Below, one piece after another: positions 2,217 through 24,588 of a DNA stretch of 64,000 bases (its first letter is position 1; the number at the start of each line of letters is the position of its first letter). Source of the stretch: a virus; the IMG/VR virus record IMGVR_UViG_3300024999_000029, positions 124,001 to 188,000 of that record. One strand, 5' to 3'. The notes beneath the pieces are model-generated. The model did no database searches. It was not told the DNA's origin and saw only the letters and a list, made by a program, of their open reading frames with translations. The position numbers and the translations under genes were made by a program.

Positions 2217-3386
2217 ATGGGAAAATACTTTACATATACTGAAGTAAAAAACTTTATTGAAATAGAAAGCCAATCAAATTGTAAATTAATTAGTAAGGAA
2301 TATATAAAATCATCCAAAAAGATAATTATTGAATGTGCTTGTGGCGAACAATTTGAAACAACTTTAGATAGTTTTAAACGAGCAAATAAAAGACAATGTA
2401 ACAAATGTTCTAGATCGTTAATAAGTGAAAGATATAGATTAAAATATGATGATGTTAAAAACTATATTGAAATAGAAAGCAACTCTATGTGTAAATTATT
2501 GTCTGAAGAGTATATAAATTCTGGAAGACATTTAAAATTATTATGTAGGTGTGGGAATATATTTTCTAAAAGCCTAAGTAACTTTAAAAAGGGGCAATAT
2601 GTTTGTAATAAATGTAGTAAAAAAGAACAAATTAAAACATTCTTATACCCTTATGAAGATATAAGAAACTTCATAGAATTTTACAGTAATAGCGACTGTG
2701 TATTATTAACTGAAGAAAAAGATTACGTTAACACTAATAATAAAATAAAAATTAGATGTAAATGTGGGAATGTTTTTGAAACTAAATTCCAATCATTTTT
2801 ACATAAAACTAAACGCCAATGTAATGAATGTGGTGATATTTTAAGAGCAGATGGTTCAAGACTGCCATATGATTTCGTTAAAAACTTTATAGAAAATATA
2901 AAAGGATATAAATTATTATCAGATACATACATAAATTCTGGAACTAAATTAGAGGTTCAATGCGACAAAGGACACATATATGAAGTAATTTGGGAGGACA
3001 TTCAGAAAGGAAACAGATGCCCATTTTGTAAAGAAACCCGTGGCGAAAAAAGAATTGAAGAATATTTATCTTTAAATAATGTTCAGCTTAAAATAGAAAA
3101 AATATTTTTAGATTGTAGATATATTCAACCGTTACGTTTTGATTTTTATTTACCAGAACATAATGTTTTAATAGAATATCAGGGTAAACAACATTATTTT
3201 CCTGTTGATTTTGCAGGGAAAGGAGAAGAGTGGGCTAACGAACAGTTTAAAATAAACCAAATTAAAGATCAAATTAAGAGAGACTATTGTAATAACAATA
3301 ATATAAAATTGTTAGAAATACCGTATTGGGATTTTGATAATATAGAAGACATACTATCAAGCAACTTATTAAAGGAGGTGGGCTAG
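2217..3386 (+). CDS. Homing-type endonuclease with zinc-ribbon repeats and a VSR-like nuclease domain
   Basis: Four repeats of about 63 residues (roughly 6-61, 75-131, 143-205, 212-272) each end in a CxC...CxxC-like zinc ribbon and probably read DNA. The C-terminal domain (about 275-389) has the PD-(D/E)xK arrangement RFDFYLP...IEYQGKQHY, as in phage VSR/EDxHD-type mobile endonucleases. It has its own strong ribosome binding site (GGGAGG) and sits between two pieces of what looks like one tail gene, with its stop adjoining the next start. Expected role: double-strand DNA cutting that spreads the gene between phages. No intron core was recognised around it, so it is read as a free-standing mobile gene. 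Confidence 0.8.
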   Translation: MGKYFTYTEVKNFIEIESQSNCKLISKEYIKSSKKIIIECACGEQFETTLDSFKRANKRQCNKCSRSLISERYRLKYDDVKNYIEIESNSMCKLLSEEYINSGRHLKLLCRCGNIFSKSLSNFKKGQYVCNKCSKKEQIKTFLYPYEDIRNFIEFYSNSDCVLLTEEKDYVNTNNKIKIRCKCGNVFETKFQSFLHKTKRQCNECGDILRADGSRLPYDFVKNFIENIKGYKLLSDTYINSGTKLEVQCDKGHIYEVIWEDIQKGNRCPFCKETRGEKRIEEYLSLNNVQLKIEKIFLDCRYIQPLRFDFYLPEHNVLIEYQGKQHYFPVDFAGKGEEWANEQFKINQIKDQIKRDYCNNNNIKLLEIPYWDFDNIEDILSSNLLKEVG

Positions 3387-7054: not shown

Positions 7055-7366
7055 ATGTCTAGAGAAATAAAAGAAATAAGCAATAATGAGTTTGAAAATG
7101 AATTTAAAAAGTTGAAGGGTAAATCTGTTTGTGTGGACATCTTAGGAGATGTAACTTTTTTAAAACTGATTGATAGTTTTGATATTCGACAATGTGGAGA
7201 TAAAATTACATTATGCGATTGTGAGGATGAAAGTAATATCAGTATTAAAAAATCTGCAATAGATTGTATTGTTCAAGATAAAAGAATATCCAACCTTAAA
7301 GATACACATATATTCCTGAAGAATGGATTAGAAATAAATCTACAGGGGGACGTTGAAAATGAATAA
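7055..7366 (+). CDS. Unknown protein, 103 aa, in the antirepressor operon
   Basis: It starts after ATAGGAGGTCTTGTA. Acidic and beta-rich, with several Cys residues and no family recognised. Its stop overlaps the start of the antirepressor by eight bases, so the two are translationally coupled and likely act together or share control by the Xre protein. Confidence 0.65.
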   Translation: MSREIKEISNNEFENEFKKLKGKSVCVDILGDVTFLKLIDSFDIRQCGDKITLCDCEDESNISIKKSAIDCIVQDKRISNLKDTHIFLKNGLEINLQGDVENE

Positions 7367-8165
7367 TTTAATAATAAAAGAAGTAAATTTTAACGGTGAT
7401 AATTTATTAGCAGTTAAAAACAACGATAATAAAATATATGTTGGCGTAAGTTATATTTGTAATGGTATAGGGTTATCTGAAGGACAAATGAAGAATGAAA
7501 GAAAGAAAATACAAGAAGACTTAGTTCTTTCTAAAGGGGGACGAAATTTGATCCTCCCTACAAATGGTGGCAATCAAGAAGTTTTAGGTATAGAATTAGA
7601 TTTTCTTCCATTATGGTTGGCTAAAATTTCTATCACTCCAAAGATGATAAAAGATAATCCAGCAGTGGTAAACAAACTTGTTGATTATCAGTTGAAAGCA
7701 AAAGATGTATTAGCAAATGCATTTATACATGGACAATATAACTTACCAACTACATACAAAGAAGCACTAATACAATTACTTACAGTGGTTGAGGAAAAAG
7801 AAAAGATAGAGGAACAAAATAAAGTACTTATTCCTAAAGCTGAAGGATATGATGATTTTCTGAGTGCTAAAAATGCTCAGACGATGAACGAGTGTGCCAA
7901 GGTGCTAAAAATTGGACGCAACAAATTATTCAAATTTTTGAGACAGAACGATGTATTAATGTCCAATAATTTACCATATCAAAGATTTTGTGATAGCAAG
8001 TATTTTACAGTTAGAGAAGTTCATTTTATCCGTGGAAATTATGAGTATAATGGATGCCAATGTTTGGTCGCTGCTAAAGGATTAGATTTCATACAGAAAT
8101 TGCTAAAAGAAAAAGGCTTCTGCGGAAACAGTTTAGCCCTCAATAAAAATAATGTAGCTATATAA
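7359..8165 (+). CDS. Phage antirepressor (P22-type N domain plus KilA-C domain)
   Basis: Residues about 10-120 match the phage antirepressor N-terminal domain (VGVSYICNGIGLSEGQMKNER; LDFLPLWLAKI; AVVNKLVDYQLKAKDVL). A coiled linker (about 135-165) leads to a KilA-C/Ant domain (KNAQTMNECAKVLKIGRNKLFKFLR). ATG 7359 is preferred over the upstream TTG because it is nine bases from AGGGGGA. Antirepressors of this class bind and inactivate phage repressors. It is transcribed from the operator-controlled promoter at 6973. Confidence 0.85.
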   Translation: MNNLIIKEVNFNGDNLLAVKNNDNKIYVGVSYICNGIGLSEGQMKNERKKIQEDLVLSKGGRNLILPTNGGNQEVLGIELDFLPLWLAKISITPKMIKDNPAVVNKLVDYQLKAKDVLANAFIHGQYNLPTTYKEALIQLLTVVEEKEKIEEQNKVLIPKAEGYDDFLSAKNAQTMNECAKVLKIGRNKLFKFLRQNDVLMSNNLPYQRFCDSKYFTVREVHFIRGNYEYNGCQCLVAAKGLDFIQKLLKEKGFCGNSLALNKNNVAI

Positions 8166-8234: not shown

Positions 8235-8283
8235 TCCCAATAAAACTTTTATTTTGTATTGACAAATGTTTAAAAATAATGTA

Positions 8284-8311
8284 TTGACATTGTATTAACA
8301 AGTGATATACT
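8284..8311 (+). promoter_or_regulatory. Promoter of the putative antitoxin RNA
   Basis: TTGACA (8284-8289), a 16-base spacer and TATACT (8306-8311) with an extended TG at 8303-8304. The -35 region lies in a direct repeat, TGTATTGACA, present also at 8256-8264. Confidence 0.7.
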
Positions 8312-8316
8312 TATTT

Positions 8317-8400
8317 CAGGTTAAGAAACGCAACAAAATAAAAAGACTAGGGGAAACCCTAGTCGGCAGGTTAAGAACGCTTGTGCAGGGCGTTCTTTAT
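8317..8400 (+). ncRNA. Putative type I antitoxin RNA
   Basis: A transcript from the promoter at 8284-8311 would end at the hairpin AAGAACGC (8373-8380) / GCGTTCTT (8390-8397), followed by TATCTTTA. It is antisense to the 3' end and terminator of the toxin mRNA, the layout of the TxpA/RatA pair of Bacillus and of type I modules in Clostridioides difficile prophages. No protein is predicted from it; the + strand frame here is not a credible gene. Confidence 0.6.
8335..8364 (-). terminator. Terminator of the toxin mRNA
   Basis: On the - strand GACTAGGG and CCCTAGTC form a perfect 8-bp stem followed by TTTTTATTTT. It lies just after the stop codon of the 32-aa ORF and strongly supports that ORF as a real gene. 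Confidence 0.85.
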
Positions 8401-8469
8401 CTTTATGTACTTCTCTACTATACACTCAGCATAGTAGATGATACACAAGACAGTTATAATAACCGTCAT
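8371..8469 (-). CDS. Putative type I toxin, 32-aa membrane peptide
   Basis: The peptide begins with a hydrophobic segment (MTVIITVLCIIYYAECIV, residues 1-18) followed by a basic tail (EKYIKIKNALHKRS). This is the plan of Fst/TxpA/BsrG-type toxins, which insert in the membrane. AGAGAGGTAATAATT precedes the ATG. The gene is followed by a perfect terminator, preceded by a leader of about 90 bases, and its 3' part is covered by an oppositely transcribed small RNA. Toxicity is inferred from architecture only. Confidence 0.7.
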   Translation of the reverse strand: MTVIITVLCIIYYAECIVEKYIKIKNALHKRS

Positions 8470-8568
8470 AATTATTACCTCTCTTTTCTCTTGTATTAGG
8501 CATGAAGCCCATCTCCAAAGACTTTCCCAATACATTTGAATTAAGATGCACTAGTACAACCTACTTTC

Positions 8569-8574
8569 ATTATA
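8569..8574 (-). promoter_or_regulatory. Probable -10 box of the toxin gene
   Basis: TATAAT on the - strand, about 100 bases upstream of the toxin start. No good -35 was seen at normal spacing; TTGTAA (8600-8595) lies 20 bases away. The long leader could hold the ribosome binding site in structure, as is known for this toxin class. Confidence 0.4.
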
Positions 8575-8627
8575 TTACAATATTTAAGATATTTTTACAA
8601 CAATTGTTTTGTAAGTTGTTTTAAAGG

Positions 8628-8644: not shown

Positions 8645-8685
8645 GGTTACTTATTTCTTAAAACCTCCCACAATCCTCCAAAATA

Positions 8686-8694
8686 TGTTATAAT
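8686..8694 (+). promoter_or_regulatory. Extended -10 promoter of the serine protease gene
   Basis: TGT-TATAAT (8686-8694) lies about 25 bases before the start region. No consensus -35 is seen; the extended TG may compensate. A similar block (CACAATCC...TATAAT) recurs near 10084-10098. Confidence 0.5.
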
Positions 8695-8718
8695 GTGAGA
8701 AATGTTTAATGAGGAGGT

Positions 8719-9777
8719 ATGGTTTTGGATATTAAAAATCTAATAAACAGTATAGAAGAACATAATAAATCAAAGGTTATTTGCTATCTTACGAATGACA
8801 ATTCTAATTTTTCTGCAAGAATTGAAAGTGATATTTATTTATATTTTCAAGAAATATTATTAAATATCGGTGAGCAAGAAAGAATTGATTTATTTTTATT
8901 CAGTATGGGTGGAAATACTTTAGTGCCTTGGAAGTTAGTTAATATGATAAGGCAGTATGCTAAGAAGTTTACGGTATTAATACCTTATCACGCAAATAGT
9001 GCTGCAACCTTGATTTCTCTGGGCGCAGATAAAATAATTATGGGTAAGATGGGTGATATAAGTCCTATAGATCCAACAATAACTACTCCATTTAATCCTT
9101 CTATACCAGGGCAAGAAAATGATTTAAGGGCAAGAATAGGATTAAGTGTAGAAGATGTGATGAGTTATTACGAATTAGCCAAAAGTACAATGAACCTTAA
9201 AGAAGAGTCGAGTTTATTAAAAGCTTTTGAATTATTATCGACCAATATAAATCCACTAGCCTTAGGTGCGGTACATAGATCTTATAACCAAATAAGAACA
9301 TTAGCACTAAAGTTATTAAAACTACACCTAAACCAGAAGGATGATTATTTATTAATAAATGAAATCATTGATAGTCTTACTCAAAAATTATATAATCATG
9401 GTCATCTCATAAATCGTAACGAAGCCTTGGAGATATTGAGTGAGAAAATTATAGAAATTCCAGATAATGAACTGGAAAATTTTATATGGCAATTATTTAA
9501 TGAATATAAAAATAATATGAAAATTAGTGAATATTTAGACTTGAGTTTAAAATGTAAAAATTTCAAGCCATTCTATTCACAAAATGATATGAATAGTGAT
9601 AAAATAGATGTAGAAGGTATTATTGCAACAATACAAAGTGCCGATATAAAATATGAATACAAAAAGACAATCACTCTTGAGCCTGCTTTAGAAATGATAT
9701 CTACGCAACAAGGCAATGTTTATAAAAACATTGGTATTCGCAGGAATGATTTTGATCAAGGGTGGATAAAATGTTAG
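8719..9777 (+). CDS. SDH_sah-type (ClpP/SppA-fold) serine protease
   Basis: Residues about 55-125 carry the hallmark of the serine dehydrogenase proteinase family: LFLFSMGGNT (oxyanion strand), then IPYHANSAATLISLGADKI with the probable nucleophile Ser94, then GKMGDISPIDP. The protein is cytosolic by sequence, with no signal peptide. The C-terminal half is helical and family-specific. GAGGAGG lies only one base from ATG 8719, so the in-frame TTG at 8725 may be the real start. It has its own promoter and is alone in its transcript with the small gene behind it, so it is an accessory gene carried by the phage; the substrate is unknown. Confidence 0.75.
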   Translation: MVLDIKNLINSIEEHNKSKVICYLTNDNSNFSARIESDIYLYFQEILLNIGEQERIDLFLFSMGGNTLVPWKLVNMIRQYAKKFTVLIPYHANSAATLISLGADKIIMGKMGDISPIDPTITTPFNPSIPGQENDLRARIGLSVEDVMSYYELAKSTMNLKEESSLLKAFELLSTNINPLALGAVHRSYNQIRTLALKLLKLHLNQKDDYLLINEIIDSLTQKLYNHGHLINRNEALEILSEKIIEIPDNELENFIWQLFNEYKNNMKISEYLDLSLKCKNFKPFYSQNDMNSDKIDVEGIIATIQSADIKYEYKKTITLEPALEMISTQQGNVYKNIGIRRNDFDQGWIKC

Positions 9778-10035: not shown

Positions 10036-10138
10036 GCATATCAAATGGTACTTTTATTGAAATTATTATCTTCAAAATATTCCACAATCCACTATAATAT
10101 GATATAGTATTAGTATTATATTTTACTTTATTTTAAAT

Positions 10139-10625: not shown

Positions 10626-11177
10626 ATGAATGGGGTTGCAGTTAGTTGTTTTACCACTACAAATAACGGAATGGCAAATGTGCTAAAAAATGAAATCTTG
10701 ATTTCTAATTCTATAATCGCAAAATCAAATGTTTTAACTAATAAATATGAAGGAATATGGGATACTGGGGCTACTGCAAGTTGTATTACAAATAAAATAG
10801 TAAAAGAATGTAATCTTTTGCCTATAGGTATTCAAAAAGTTATTGCTGCCAATGGTGAATATCTCACGAATCAATATATTGTAGATTTGTGGTTGCCTAA
10901 TAAAATTGTTATTAAAAATTTAAGAGTTACAGAAGGCTCATTTAGTGGAGCAGACTTGTTAATAGGAATGGATGTTATGAACAAGGGAGATTTTGCTGTT
11001 TCTAATTATAATGGGAAAACTATTTTTTCTTTTAGAATGCCTTCTGTGTCTGAAACTAATTATGTTAAATTATATAATTCTACAATCCCATCAAAAAAAG
11101 CACCCAAAATAGGAGCAAATGAACTTTGCCCGTGTGGTACTGGGAAAAAATATAAGAAATGTTGTGGTAAAAAATAG
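10626..11177 (+). CDS. Retropepsin-like aspartic protease with C-terminal SEC-C zinc motif
   Basis: The residues around 41-55 (EGIWDTGATASCI) form the D-T-G active-site loop of retroviral-type aspartic proteases (Asp46), followed by a flap-like region and the second hydrophobic-hydrophobic-Gly segment (DLLIGMDVM). A single copy of the site implies dimerisation. The C-terminus is a SEC-C zinc-binding motif with Cys168, Cys170, Cys179 and Cys180. No signal peptide. The start used has a weak site (GAGGTAAATGTAG). Its neighbour is the DUF5678 gene, and the pair is bounded by two near-identical terminators. Substrate unknown. Confidence 0.8.
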   Translation: MNGVAVSCFTTTNNGMANVLKNEILISNSIIAKSNVLTNKYEGIWDTGATASCITNKIVKECNLLPIGIQKVIAANGEYLTNQYIVDLWLPNKIVIKNLRVTEGSFSGADLLIGMDVMNKGDFAVSNYNGKTIFSFRMPSVSETNYVKLYNSTIPSKKAPKIGANELCPCGTGKKYKKCCGKK

Positions 11178-22845: not shown

Positions 22846-24588
22846 TTAAGAAGCAAGTTCAAATTGTAAATCTATAATGTAATTAACCTCTACAGGATGT
22901 GTATCTCTAGCGTTTTTCTTTCTAAAAAATTTAAACATGCGTTTGTTATCTTCTATATGTGTGATAAACATCAAATGCATATCTCTTATGAAGTAAACTG
23001 GTATTTCACCCAGACCCGCTTTTAATACAACATTAATGCATATTTCATTTTTTTCTTTCCCTTTTGATACTTCAATTTTTTCCAAAAATTTATCCATTGT
23101 TTCTTCGTCTAGTTCACTGTTAATATCAAAATCAAAATTAAAGAATTCTTTTAATGATTTTACTTGTGATGCTACATCATACTTTGCATCGTTTAATTTT
23201 TCATAATTTTTTATTCGTTTTTCATAACCCTCAATTTCATCATTTAAATCTTTAATTTGTTCTTGATAATCGTTGTCCGCTACATTTCCTCCCGCATATA
23301 ACCGTAAAAGATTTTTCTTTAATACTTTATTTTCATTTATATTGTTCATCAACTCTTTAATATCTTTGTCATAATTAACTTCTTTTAAATATTTAGAATG
23401 TAGTTCAGTTAATTCTTTGCTAAAAACGTTTTTATACTTAGAATACATATGTAGTACGTGTTTCATAATATCATCCAACTCATTTTTATACATCATTGGA
23501 CTATCGCAAAATTTTTTACCTTTTTTTCTATAAATTTTACATTGCCATACTTCTTTTGATTCTATAGTGTCGTATTTATAAAAATTTCTCCAATATGATG
23601 TTTTGTGTTCTGAGCAAATTATTTTTCCAGAATATAAGAATTTATTTTGATACGATGTCTTATCTTCGGATGTCATTTTTTCACTTCTTTGTTTTAAGAT
23701 ATTGTTTGCCTTTTCCCATATTTCCTCGGAAACAATTGGTGGAACGCTTTCATAATCTTTATATGTTATCCATTTATCTGAATTAAAAAACTCTCGCTCT
23801 TTTGTAATAAAATCTATTGTTGTTGATTTTTTACCACAATAATATCCCTTATATTTTGGATTAGTAATAATAGATTTTATAGTATTAAACGTAATGGGGT
23901 TTCCGTTTCTATTTACAATTTCTTTTTGAGACAGCATATCGGATACTGTCCTTATTCCTTTATTTTGATTTGCATATAAATCGAAGATTTGACATACAAT
24001 TTCAGCTTCTTCTTTCTCTATTACTAGTTTGCCATTTTCTTTATTATATCCCCATATTTTATTATTCCCCAACACTTTTCCCGAATCGATTGAACGTTTA
24101 TGCCCCCATTTAACTCTATCTGATATCTTTCTACTTTCTTCTTGAGCTAAACTAGACATTATGGCAAGTTTAACCTCCGAATCTGGCATCAAGGTATTTA
24201 TTCCATCATTTTGAAATAGCACTCCTATACCGTATTTTAATAATTCTCTAGTATAAAACAAGCTATCAATTGTATTTCTAGCAAATCTACTTACTTCTTT
24301 AGTTATAACTAAATCAAATTTCTTATTTCTTCCGTCTTCAATCATTTGGTTAAATGCTTCTCTTTTATTGATTGATGTGCCTGTAATACCTTCATCGATG
24401 TATCCTTCTACGAGAGTCCAATTATTACAACTTTTAATATGTTCTTCAAAATAATTAATTTGATTCTTGAGAGAGTTTAATTGATCTAAGGTAGAAGTTG
24501 ATACCCTAGTATAATATGTAACTCTTAACTGTAAGTCGTAGATAGATTTGCCTAGATTCAAAGTATTTCTAATTGTATATAAGTCCAT
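22846..24588 (-). CDS. Large serine recombinase (phage integrase)
   Basis: The N-terminal resolvase domain has the active-site motif YYTRVS with Ser30, followed by GYIDEGITGT and TKEVSRFARN. The recombinase domain follows (about 160-260; IWGYNKENGK, IFDLYANQNKGIRTVSDML), then a zinc ribbon (about 315-360, CSEHKT...WQCKIYRKKGKKFC) and a long coiled coil (about 410-480). At 580 residues it is of normal length. It should integrate and excise the phage between attP and attB. The start follows AGAGGTGAAGA. It has its own promoter at 24637-24664. Confidence 0.9.
   Translation of the reverse strand: MDLYTIRNTLNLGKSIYDLQLRVTYYTRVSTSTLDQLNSLKNQINYFEEHIKSCNNWTLVEGYIDEGITGTSINKREAFNQMIEDGRNKKFDLVITKEVSRFARNTIDSLFYTRELLKYGIGVLFQNDGINTLMPDSEVKLAIMSSLAQEESRKISDRVKWGHKRSIDSGKVLGNNKIWGYNKENGKLVIEKEEAEIVCQIFDLYANQNKGIRTVSDMLSQKEIVNRNGNPITFNTIKSIITNPKYKGYYCGKKSTTIDFITKEREFFNSDKWITYKDYESVPPIVSEEIWEKANNILKQRSEKMTSEDKTSYQNKFLYSGKIICSEHKTSYWRNFYKYDTIESKEVWQCKIYRKKGKKFCDSPMMYKNELDDIMKHVLHMYSKYKNVFSKELTELHSKYLKEVNYDKDIKELMNNINENKVLKKNLLRLYAGGNVADNDYQEQIKDLNDEIEGYEKRIKNYEKLNDAKYDVASQVKSLKEFFNFDFDINSELDEETMDKFLEKIEVSKGKEKNEICINVVLKAGLGEIPVYFIRDMHLMFITHIEDNKRMFKFFRKKNARDTHPVEVNYIIDLQFELAS

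What the first reader, a model, noticed from the sequence alone, without database searches (positions are those of the whole stretch)
8256..8600. Undescribed type I toxin-antitoxin module in the tail/accessory region
A 32-aa hydrophobic peptide with a basic tail (- strand, 8371-8469) has its own ribosome binding site, a perfect terminator (8335-8364) and a long leader. An extended-10 promoter (8284-8311) drives a + strand RNA ending at a hairpin inside the toxin's last codons, so the RNAs overlap at their 3' ends. This is the TxpA/RatA and C. difficile prophage layout, with a peptide sequence I do not recognise.
Basis: partly seen in the sequence, partly recalled or inferred. Interest (0 to 1): 0.75.

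Follow-up and report, generated by a model that had tools for sequence, protein, structure and literature searches.

The report
Phage type I toxin–antitoxin module
A large phage that probably infects Gram-positive bacteria carries a 300-base cassette encoding a 32-residue membrane peptide and, on the other strand, a small RNA that pairs with the peptide's message; it looks like a self-contained addiction switch built on a known plan but with a toxin sequence not matched in any collection searched.

Summary
The 32-aa ORF (8371-8469, -), its ribosome-binding site, a perfect terminator (8345-8364, T-run to 8335), the extended -10 promoter (8284-8311, +) and the + strand hairpin inside the last codons are all there. 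It is the only ORF in 64 kb with this mix of RBS, hydrophobic core and basic tail; 1 of 300 shuffles gives one.

A diverged copy (86% DNA, peptide 29/32) lies behind the same antirepressor gene in another phage contig, IMGVR_3300025030_000046. A third relative lacks it. Similarity runs only from the antitoxin -10 to the toxin -35 (8303-8600), so the cassette travels as a unit.

Between copies, 13 changes fall on paired bases of the predicted toxin mRNA, yet 2 of 74 pairs break (about 10 expected). These include a helix joining mRNA 5' end and stop codon. The ~85-nt antisense RNA begins with a repeat of the site it overlaps at the stop codon.

Best reading: a type I toxin-antitoxin module with TxpA/RatA-like geometry plus Fst/par-like repeats and 5'-end closure. 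The peptide matches no family tested. New member of a known kind. Toxicity and both transcripts are unproven; direct coding evidence is modest (P = 0.08).

The parts
8371..8469 (-). 32-aa toxin-like peptide MTVIITVLCIIYYAECIVEKYIKIKNALHKRS
   Evidence: Translation; homologue MIVVTTVLCIIYYAECIVEKYIKIKNALHKRS in L006, stop TAA->TGA; only ORF of its kind in the window
8475..8484 (-). Ribosome-binding site (AGAGAGGTAA), 5-nt match to the anti-SD complement, invariant in L006
   Evidence: predicted paired with 5'-leader bases in the window sequence
8345..8364 (-). Terminator hairpin of the toxin mRNA, T-run to 8335; stem kept by compensatory changes in L006
8572..8600 (-). Probable toxin promoter: TTGTAA (8600-8595), 17 nt, TAATAT (8577-8572); L006 has TTGTAA-17-TAAAAT
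   Evidence: Sequence; not flagged by the promoter scan at its threshold
8337..8566 (-). Inferred toxin mRNA, about 230 nt with a ~96-nt leader
   Evidence: Inferred from promoter and terminator; fold z = -6.2 over 8330-8580
8284..8311 (+). Antitoxin promoter TTGACA-16-TATACT, extended -10; L006 keeps TGATATAAT
8318..8402 (+). Inferred antisense antitoxin RNA, about 85 nt; up to 69 nt of perfect complementarity to the inferred toxin mRNA
   Evidence: Promoter and terminator positions
8373..8397 (+). Terminator hairpin of the antitoxin, lying inside the toxin's last codons; T-tail imperfect; invariant in L006
8317..8331 (+). 5'-end repeat of the antitoxin (CAGGTTAAGAAACGC), outside the toxin mRNA
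   Evidence: kept in L006 as CAGGTTAAGAACGC
8367..8380 (+). Internal copy of the repeat (CAGGTTAAGAACGC), complementary to the end of the toxin CDS
8558..8564 (-). mRNA 5'-end arm GUAGGUU of the 5'-3' closing helix
   Evidence: Pairing probability close to 1 in both phages for most of the arm, given the assumed start site; three pair-preserving changes
8366..8372 (-). mRNA 3' arm AACCUGC (overlaps the stop codon) of the closing helix
8303..8600 (.). Whole cassette as delimited by similarity to L006 (86%); no similarity directly outside

Best explanation
A type I toxin-antitoxin cassette carried by a probably temperate phage. The - strand gives a stable, strongly folded mRNA for a 32-aa peptide predicted to insert in the host membrane. 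The + strand gives a short, strongly transcribed antisense RNA of about 85 nt that covers the last ~10 codons, the 3' UTR and the terminator hairpin of the mRNA. Pairing most likely starts at the antitoxin's unpaired 5' repeat or at the complementary hairpin loops. It displaces the helix that ties the mRNA's 5' end to its stop codon and grows into a ~65-bp duplex cut by RNase III, as in TxpA/RatA. Until then, leader structure limits translation. If the phage genome is lost, the unstable antitoxin runs out first and the peptide damages the membrane, so the cassette would favour retention of the phage. Shown here: the sequence elements, the unit-like conservation and the pairing-preserving changes. 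Inferred: transcription, relative RNA stabilities, toxicity, RNase III cleavage, retention role.
For: All layout elements are present. A diverged copy exists whose similarity stops at the two promoters, and a related phage lacks it. There are 13 substitutions at paired bases with 2 of 74 pairs broken, against 10.2 expected at random (0 of 20,000 as good) or 6.4 when substitutions are confined to paired sites (P = 0.0006); the fold energy is unchanged at about -80 kcal/mol against about -60 for random mutants. Unique ORF of this type in 64 kb. Antitoxin 5' repeat pairs with the mRNA at -19 and -27 kcal/mol in the two phages, better than 500 of 500 shuffles each. Antitoxin binding to the 3' end is not predicted to change RBS access much, which favours decay over direct RBS block. 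Integrase-like and serine recombinase genes on the same record fit a temperate phage. Published precedent: C. difficile prophage, SPbeta and skin modules (PMC6563280, PMC4147584, PMC3531473).
Against: No expression or toxicity data. Protein-level selection is only weakly supported: 3 aa changes against 5.0 expected, P = 0.08 with the ORF intact, and all three changed residues lie in a stem whose pairing is kept. Only two distinct versions were found. The toxin promoter is a weak consensus match. The toxin mRNA is also a plausible structured RNA in its own right.
Confidence: 0.77

Rival explanations
1. A pair of structured noncoding RNAs (a phage regulatory RNA and its antisense) in which the short ORF is incidental.
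For: Pair-preserving changes are far stronger than protein-level constraint, and the three amino-acid changes sit in a stem whose pairing is kept.
Against: An RBS at good spacing, an ORF kept open with the stop changed TAA->TGA, a hydrophobic core and a basic tail occur together once in 64 kb and in 1 of 300 shuffles. Nothing in Rfam matches.
Confidence: 0.12
2. A small membrane peptide with a phage-specific job (superinfection exclusion, lysis timing or membrane signalling), tuned by an antisense RNA but not an addiction module.
For: Small hydrophobic phage peptides with such jobs exist (general knowledge). The site lies in an exchangeable accessory slot between the antirepressor and a conserved promoter.
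Against: The antisense layout and the self-contained two-promoter cassette are what type I modules show. No lysis or immunity gene family matches.
Confidence: 0.1
3. Chance: convergent terminators and a random hydrophobic ORF in AT-rich intergenic DNA.
For: Only two distinct versions, both from one phage group.
Against: Terminator-like sites 4 against 0.2 expected; fold z-scores -4.6 and -6.2; conserved pairing; sharp cassette edges.
Confidence: 0.01

Closest known systems
TxpA/RatA and BsrG/SR4 (Bacillus subtilis skin element and SPbeta prophage)
   Same: Convergent RNAs overlapping at their 3' ends (published overlaps about 75-120 nt; here about 65); small hydrophobic toxin with charged tail; prophage location; antisense RNA does not cover the RBS.
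   Different: Peptide 32 aa with no detectable sequence similarity in any family library; antitoxin shorter (about 85 nt) and carrying a duplicated pairing site; antitoxin terminator lies inside the toxin CDS.
Fst / par of pAD1 (Fst/Ldr superfamily)
   Same: Peptide of about the same size (33 aa in Fst, 32 here); convergent promoters; mRNA about 230 nt; direct repeats that add complementarity between the RNAs; intramolecular pairing that sequesters the mRNA 5' end and the SD (PMC7472228).
   Different: No PXXXG motif and no tryptophan; no Pfam or NCBIfam match; the repeats sit at the toxin's stop codon and the antitoxin 5' end, not at the toxin start; two separate terminators rather than one shared bidirectional one.
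Clostridioides difficile prophage type I modules (CD0956.2-RCd10 and relatives)
   Same: 30-56 aa toxins with hydrophobic N-terminus and lysine-rich C-terminus, convergent overlapping antitoxin, prophage location (PMC6563280).
   Different: No sequence match to any phage record by tblastn at E<=10; the SigB promoters and CRISPR linkage reported for C. difficile modules were not looked for here.

Membership tests
Type I toxin-antitoxin (general) | Small hydrophobic peptide with charged or basic C-terminus and its own RBS | tested here: met
Type I toxin-antitoxin (general) | Antisense RNA from its own promoter, complementary to the toxin mRNA | tested here: met
   By sequence only: promoter, terminator and up to 69 nt of complementarity; transcript not shown
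Type I toxin-antitoxin (general) | Peptide toxic, antisense RNA suppresses it | not testable with these tools
   Needs an expression assay
Type I toxin-antitoxin (general) | Cassette conserved as a unit | tested here: met
   Similarity confined to 8303-8600
TxpA/BsrG toxin family | Sequence similarity of the toxin | tested here: not met
   No match in Pfam, NCBIfam, PHROGs or annotated phages; direct pairwise alignment to TxpA not done
TxpA/BsrG toxin family | Convergent RNAs overlapping at 3' ends | tested here: met
   Predicted overlap about 65 nt, from sequence
Fst/Ldr (par) | PXXXG(C) motif and conserved tryptophan / family profile match | tested here: not met
   Peptide lacks P, G and W; no family match
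Fst/Ldr (par) | Direct repeats DRa/DRb pairing at the toxin translation start | tested here: not met
   Repeats exist but at antitoxin 5' end and toxin stop codon
Fst/Ldr (par) | mRNA 5' end and SD sequestered by intramolecular pairing | tested here: met
   By prediction. 5' end: pairing probability near 1 in both phages; SD largely paired in the window copy, AUG paired in L006
C. difficile prophage type I toxins | Homology to CD0956.2-like toxins | tested here: not met
   No tblastn match at E<=10 in 50,697 phage records; direct pairwise alignment not done

The most novel reading that the evidence does not exclude
The cassette is a type I variant with three-way mimicry: the toxin mRNA's 5' end (GYRGGUU) imitates the antitoxin's repeat and holds the stop-codon site shut, while the antitoxin carries two copies of that repeat, a free 5' 'seed' and the cis-complementary one, and must compete the mRNA 5' end off. 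Toxin silencing would then depend on an RNA strand exchange at the stop codon rather than at the RBS.
Probability: 0.3. Interest if true: 0.5.

Novelty: new member of a known kind. Interest (0 to 1): 0.4.

Why it matters
Type I modules are hard to find because the toxins are tiny and unalike. This one adds an unmatched toxin sequence in a phage outside the model organisms, with a second natural version whose changes map the RNA contacts that selection protects. It also suggests a testable combination of par-like and TxpA-like control.

Tried and rejected
Rfam at gathering threshold and at E<=10: chance matches only. tblastn of the peptide in phages and plasmids: none. blastn of the intergenic region in phages: short AT-rich matches covering at most 11% of the query, taken as chance. 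Degenerate peptide, leader and 3'-end patterns in viral contigs: only the same three contigs plus one chance match, L042, which has stops in frame. Degenerate pattern in 84,980 bacterial and archaeal genomes: five matches. L014 and L018 have stops in frame, L015 and L016 do not resemble the peptide beyond the pattern, and L017 has an in-frame stop in its aligned stretch, so all five were judged chance. Type III (ToxIN-like) was considered because of the repeat in the + RNA; rejected because the downstream gene is an SDH/ClpP-like protease, not a ToxN-type nuclease, and the repeat is a pairing site. A bidirectional terminator was considered; rejected because the + strand copy of the 8345-8364 hairpin has no T-run.

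Full report
Setting. The window is bases 124,001-188,000 of a 349,050-base virus record. The gene to the left of the finding is a KilAC-type antirepressor (7353-8165, Pfam ANT and P22_AR_N). The gene to the right is an SDH/ClpP-like serine protease (8719-9777). The tail protein at 23-2089 resembles those of large phages of Bacillus, Psychrobacillus and Brevibacillus at about 30% identity. The host is therefore probably Bacillota, but it is not known. The record also holds several tyrosine-recombinase matches and two serine recombinases, so a temperate life is likely. No ParA-type ATPase was found.

The observation. The promoter scan did not flag a promoter for the toxin. By eye there is TTGTAA-17-TAATAT at 8600-8572(-), with TTGTAA-17-TAAAAT at the same place in the related copy. 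Both predicted RNAs fold far better than shuffled sequence (z = -4.6 for 8316-8412(+), -6.2 for 8330-8580(-)). A screen of all ORFs of 20-60 aa on both strands of the window for an RBS match of at least 5 nt, a hydrophobic 15-residue core and a net +3 tail returned this peptide alone, and 1 of 300 shuffles of the intergenic region gave such an ORF. The thresholds were chosen after seeing the peptide, so this figure is indicative.

A second version. Pattern searches found the identical cassette in two other contigs of the same phage. The antirepressor search added a diverged phage (IMGVR_3300025030_000046; loci L006, L013, L020) with an 86% identical cassette directly after its antirepressor gene, and a third phage (L007, L021) with the same antirepressor region but no cassette. 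Similarity between the window and L006 runs from 8303 to 8600 and is absent directly outside. Those limits are the extended -10 of the antitoxin promoter and the -35 of the proposed toxin promoter. The two-RNA unit is thus what is kept and moved.

Selection on RNA structure. The toxin mRNA was folded from the window sequence alone and the 25 L006 substitutions were then mapped onto it. Thirteen fall at paired bases, and 2 of 74 pairs are lost. Random placement of the same substitutions loses 10.2 on average (0 of 20,000 as good); confining them to paired bases loses 6.4 (P = 0.0006). L006 folds at -80.7 kcal/mol and the window at -80.1, against a mean of -60.0 for random mutants. Two pairs change on both sides: A-U to G-C in the hairpin over the first codons, and U-A to G-C in the terminator. 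The helix that ties the mRNA's 5' end (GUAGGUU, 8564-8558) to the bases around the stop codon (AACCUGC, 8372-8366) takes changes at three pairs, with a fourth neighbouring base pair included in the consensus, without losing a pair. Its pairing probability is near 1 in both phages, for the assumed start site.

Selection on the peptide. The reading frame stays open and the stop changes from TAA to TGA. Three residues change near the N-terminus where 5.0 are expected (P = 0.10; 0.08 with the ORF also intact). That is suggestive only. The changed residues lie in a conserved stem, so the two constraints cannot be separated with two sequences.

The antitoxin. In both phages the predicted start of the + RNA falls at the first bases of the repeat CAGGTTAAGAA(A)CGC (8317-8331); a second copy (8367-8380) is the complement of the end of the toxin gene. 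The first copy lies beyond the toxin terminator, so its own complement is not in the mature toxin mRNA. Its best match there is the stop-codon site, at -19.0 kcal/mol (window) and -27.2 kcal/mol (L006), better than all 500 shuffles in each case. In the window it is predicted unpaired; in L006 it can pair with the terminator arm of its own RNA. I infer that it serves as a second, more exposed pairing site. The mRNA's own 5' end resembles the same repeat and occupies the same target.

How it probably works. Antitoxin pairing at the 3' end gives a duplex of about 65-69 bp (cofold energy -180 against -110 kcal/mol for the separate RNAs). Modelling the 3' end as bound hardly alters RBS or start-codon access, so decay by RNase III, as for TxpA/RatA (PMC4147584, PMC3531473), is more likely than direct translation block. 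Leader structure limits initiation: the SD is paired in the window copy; in L006 the AUG is paired instead. Which event frees the mRNA for translation is not known. Trimming up to 30 nt from the 5' end did not strongly open the RBS in the model.

Known systems. The peptide matches no model in Pfam, NCBIfam (best E 0.04, far under its cut-off), PHROGs (best E 0.26) or PADLOC, no PDB chain, and no phage or plasmid record. The layout is that of TxpA/RatA and BsrG/SR4 and of the C. difficile prophage modules, which share size range and architecture but not sequence with each other (PMC6563280). The direct repeats and the 5'-end/SD sequestration recall par of pAD1 (PMC7472228), but the Fst motif, the shared terminator and the repeat position are not met. 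It works like a type I module; it is not shown to belong to any named toxin family.

Limits. Only two distinct versions are known, no Bacillota-wide profile search could be run, and nothing here shows expression or toxicity.

Noticed in passing
window 8660-8702; L006 5812-5854; L007 6175-6226: A promoter-like block (CCTCCCACAATCCTCCAAAATATGTTATAATGTGAGAA) is 100% conserved over 43 nt in L006 and 91% over 54 nt in L007, and precedes a different, apparently unrelated gene in each of the three phages. With the antirepressor on the left it frames an exchangeable cargo slot.
   Followed up: partly
window 10063-10106: A weaker copy of that promoter block (80% over 44 nt) lies upstream of the 10345-10599 gene.
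   Followed up: no
window 24076-24516 (-): Serine recombinase domain (PF00239, E 2e-31) in a 581-aa open frame: a large serine recombinase, a candidate phage integrase.
   Followed up: no
window 10626-11177: 183-aa protein with an aspartyl-protease-like domain and a C-terminal SEC-C motif; the SEC-C end matches PADLOC candidate-defence models weakly.
   Followed up: no
window 2217-3386: 389-aa protein with repeated Cys-rich motifs between tail genes; looks like a homing-endonuclease-type gene (impression from the translation only).
   Followed up: no
L013 1928-3032 and 6584-7703: The related phage has two copies of the small-gene + antirepressor pair with different N-terminal halves and similar C-terminal halves, suggesting domain swapping of antirepressors.
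   Followed up: no
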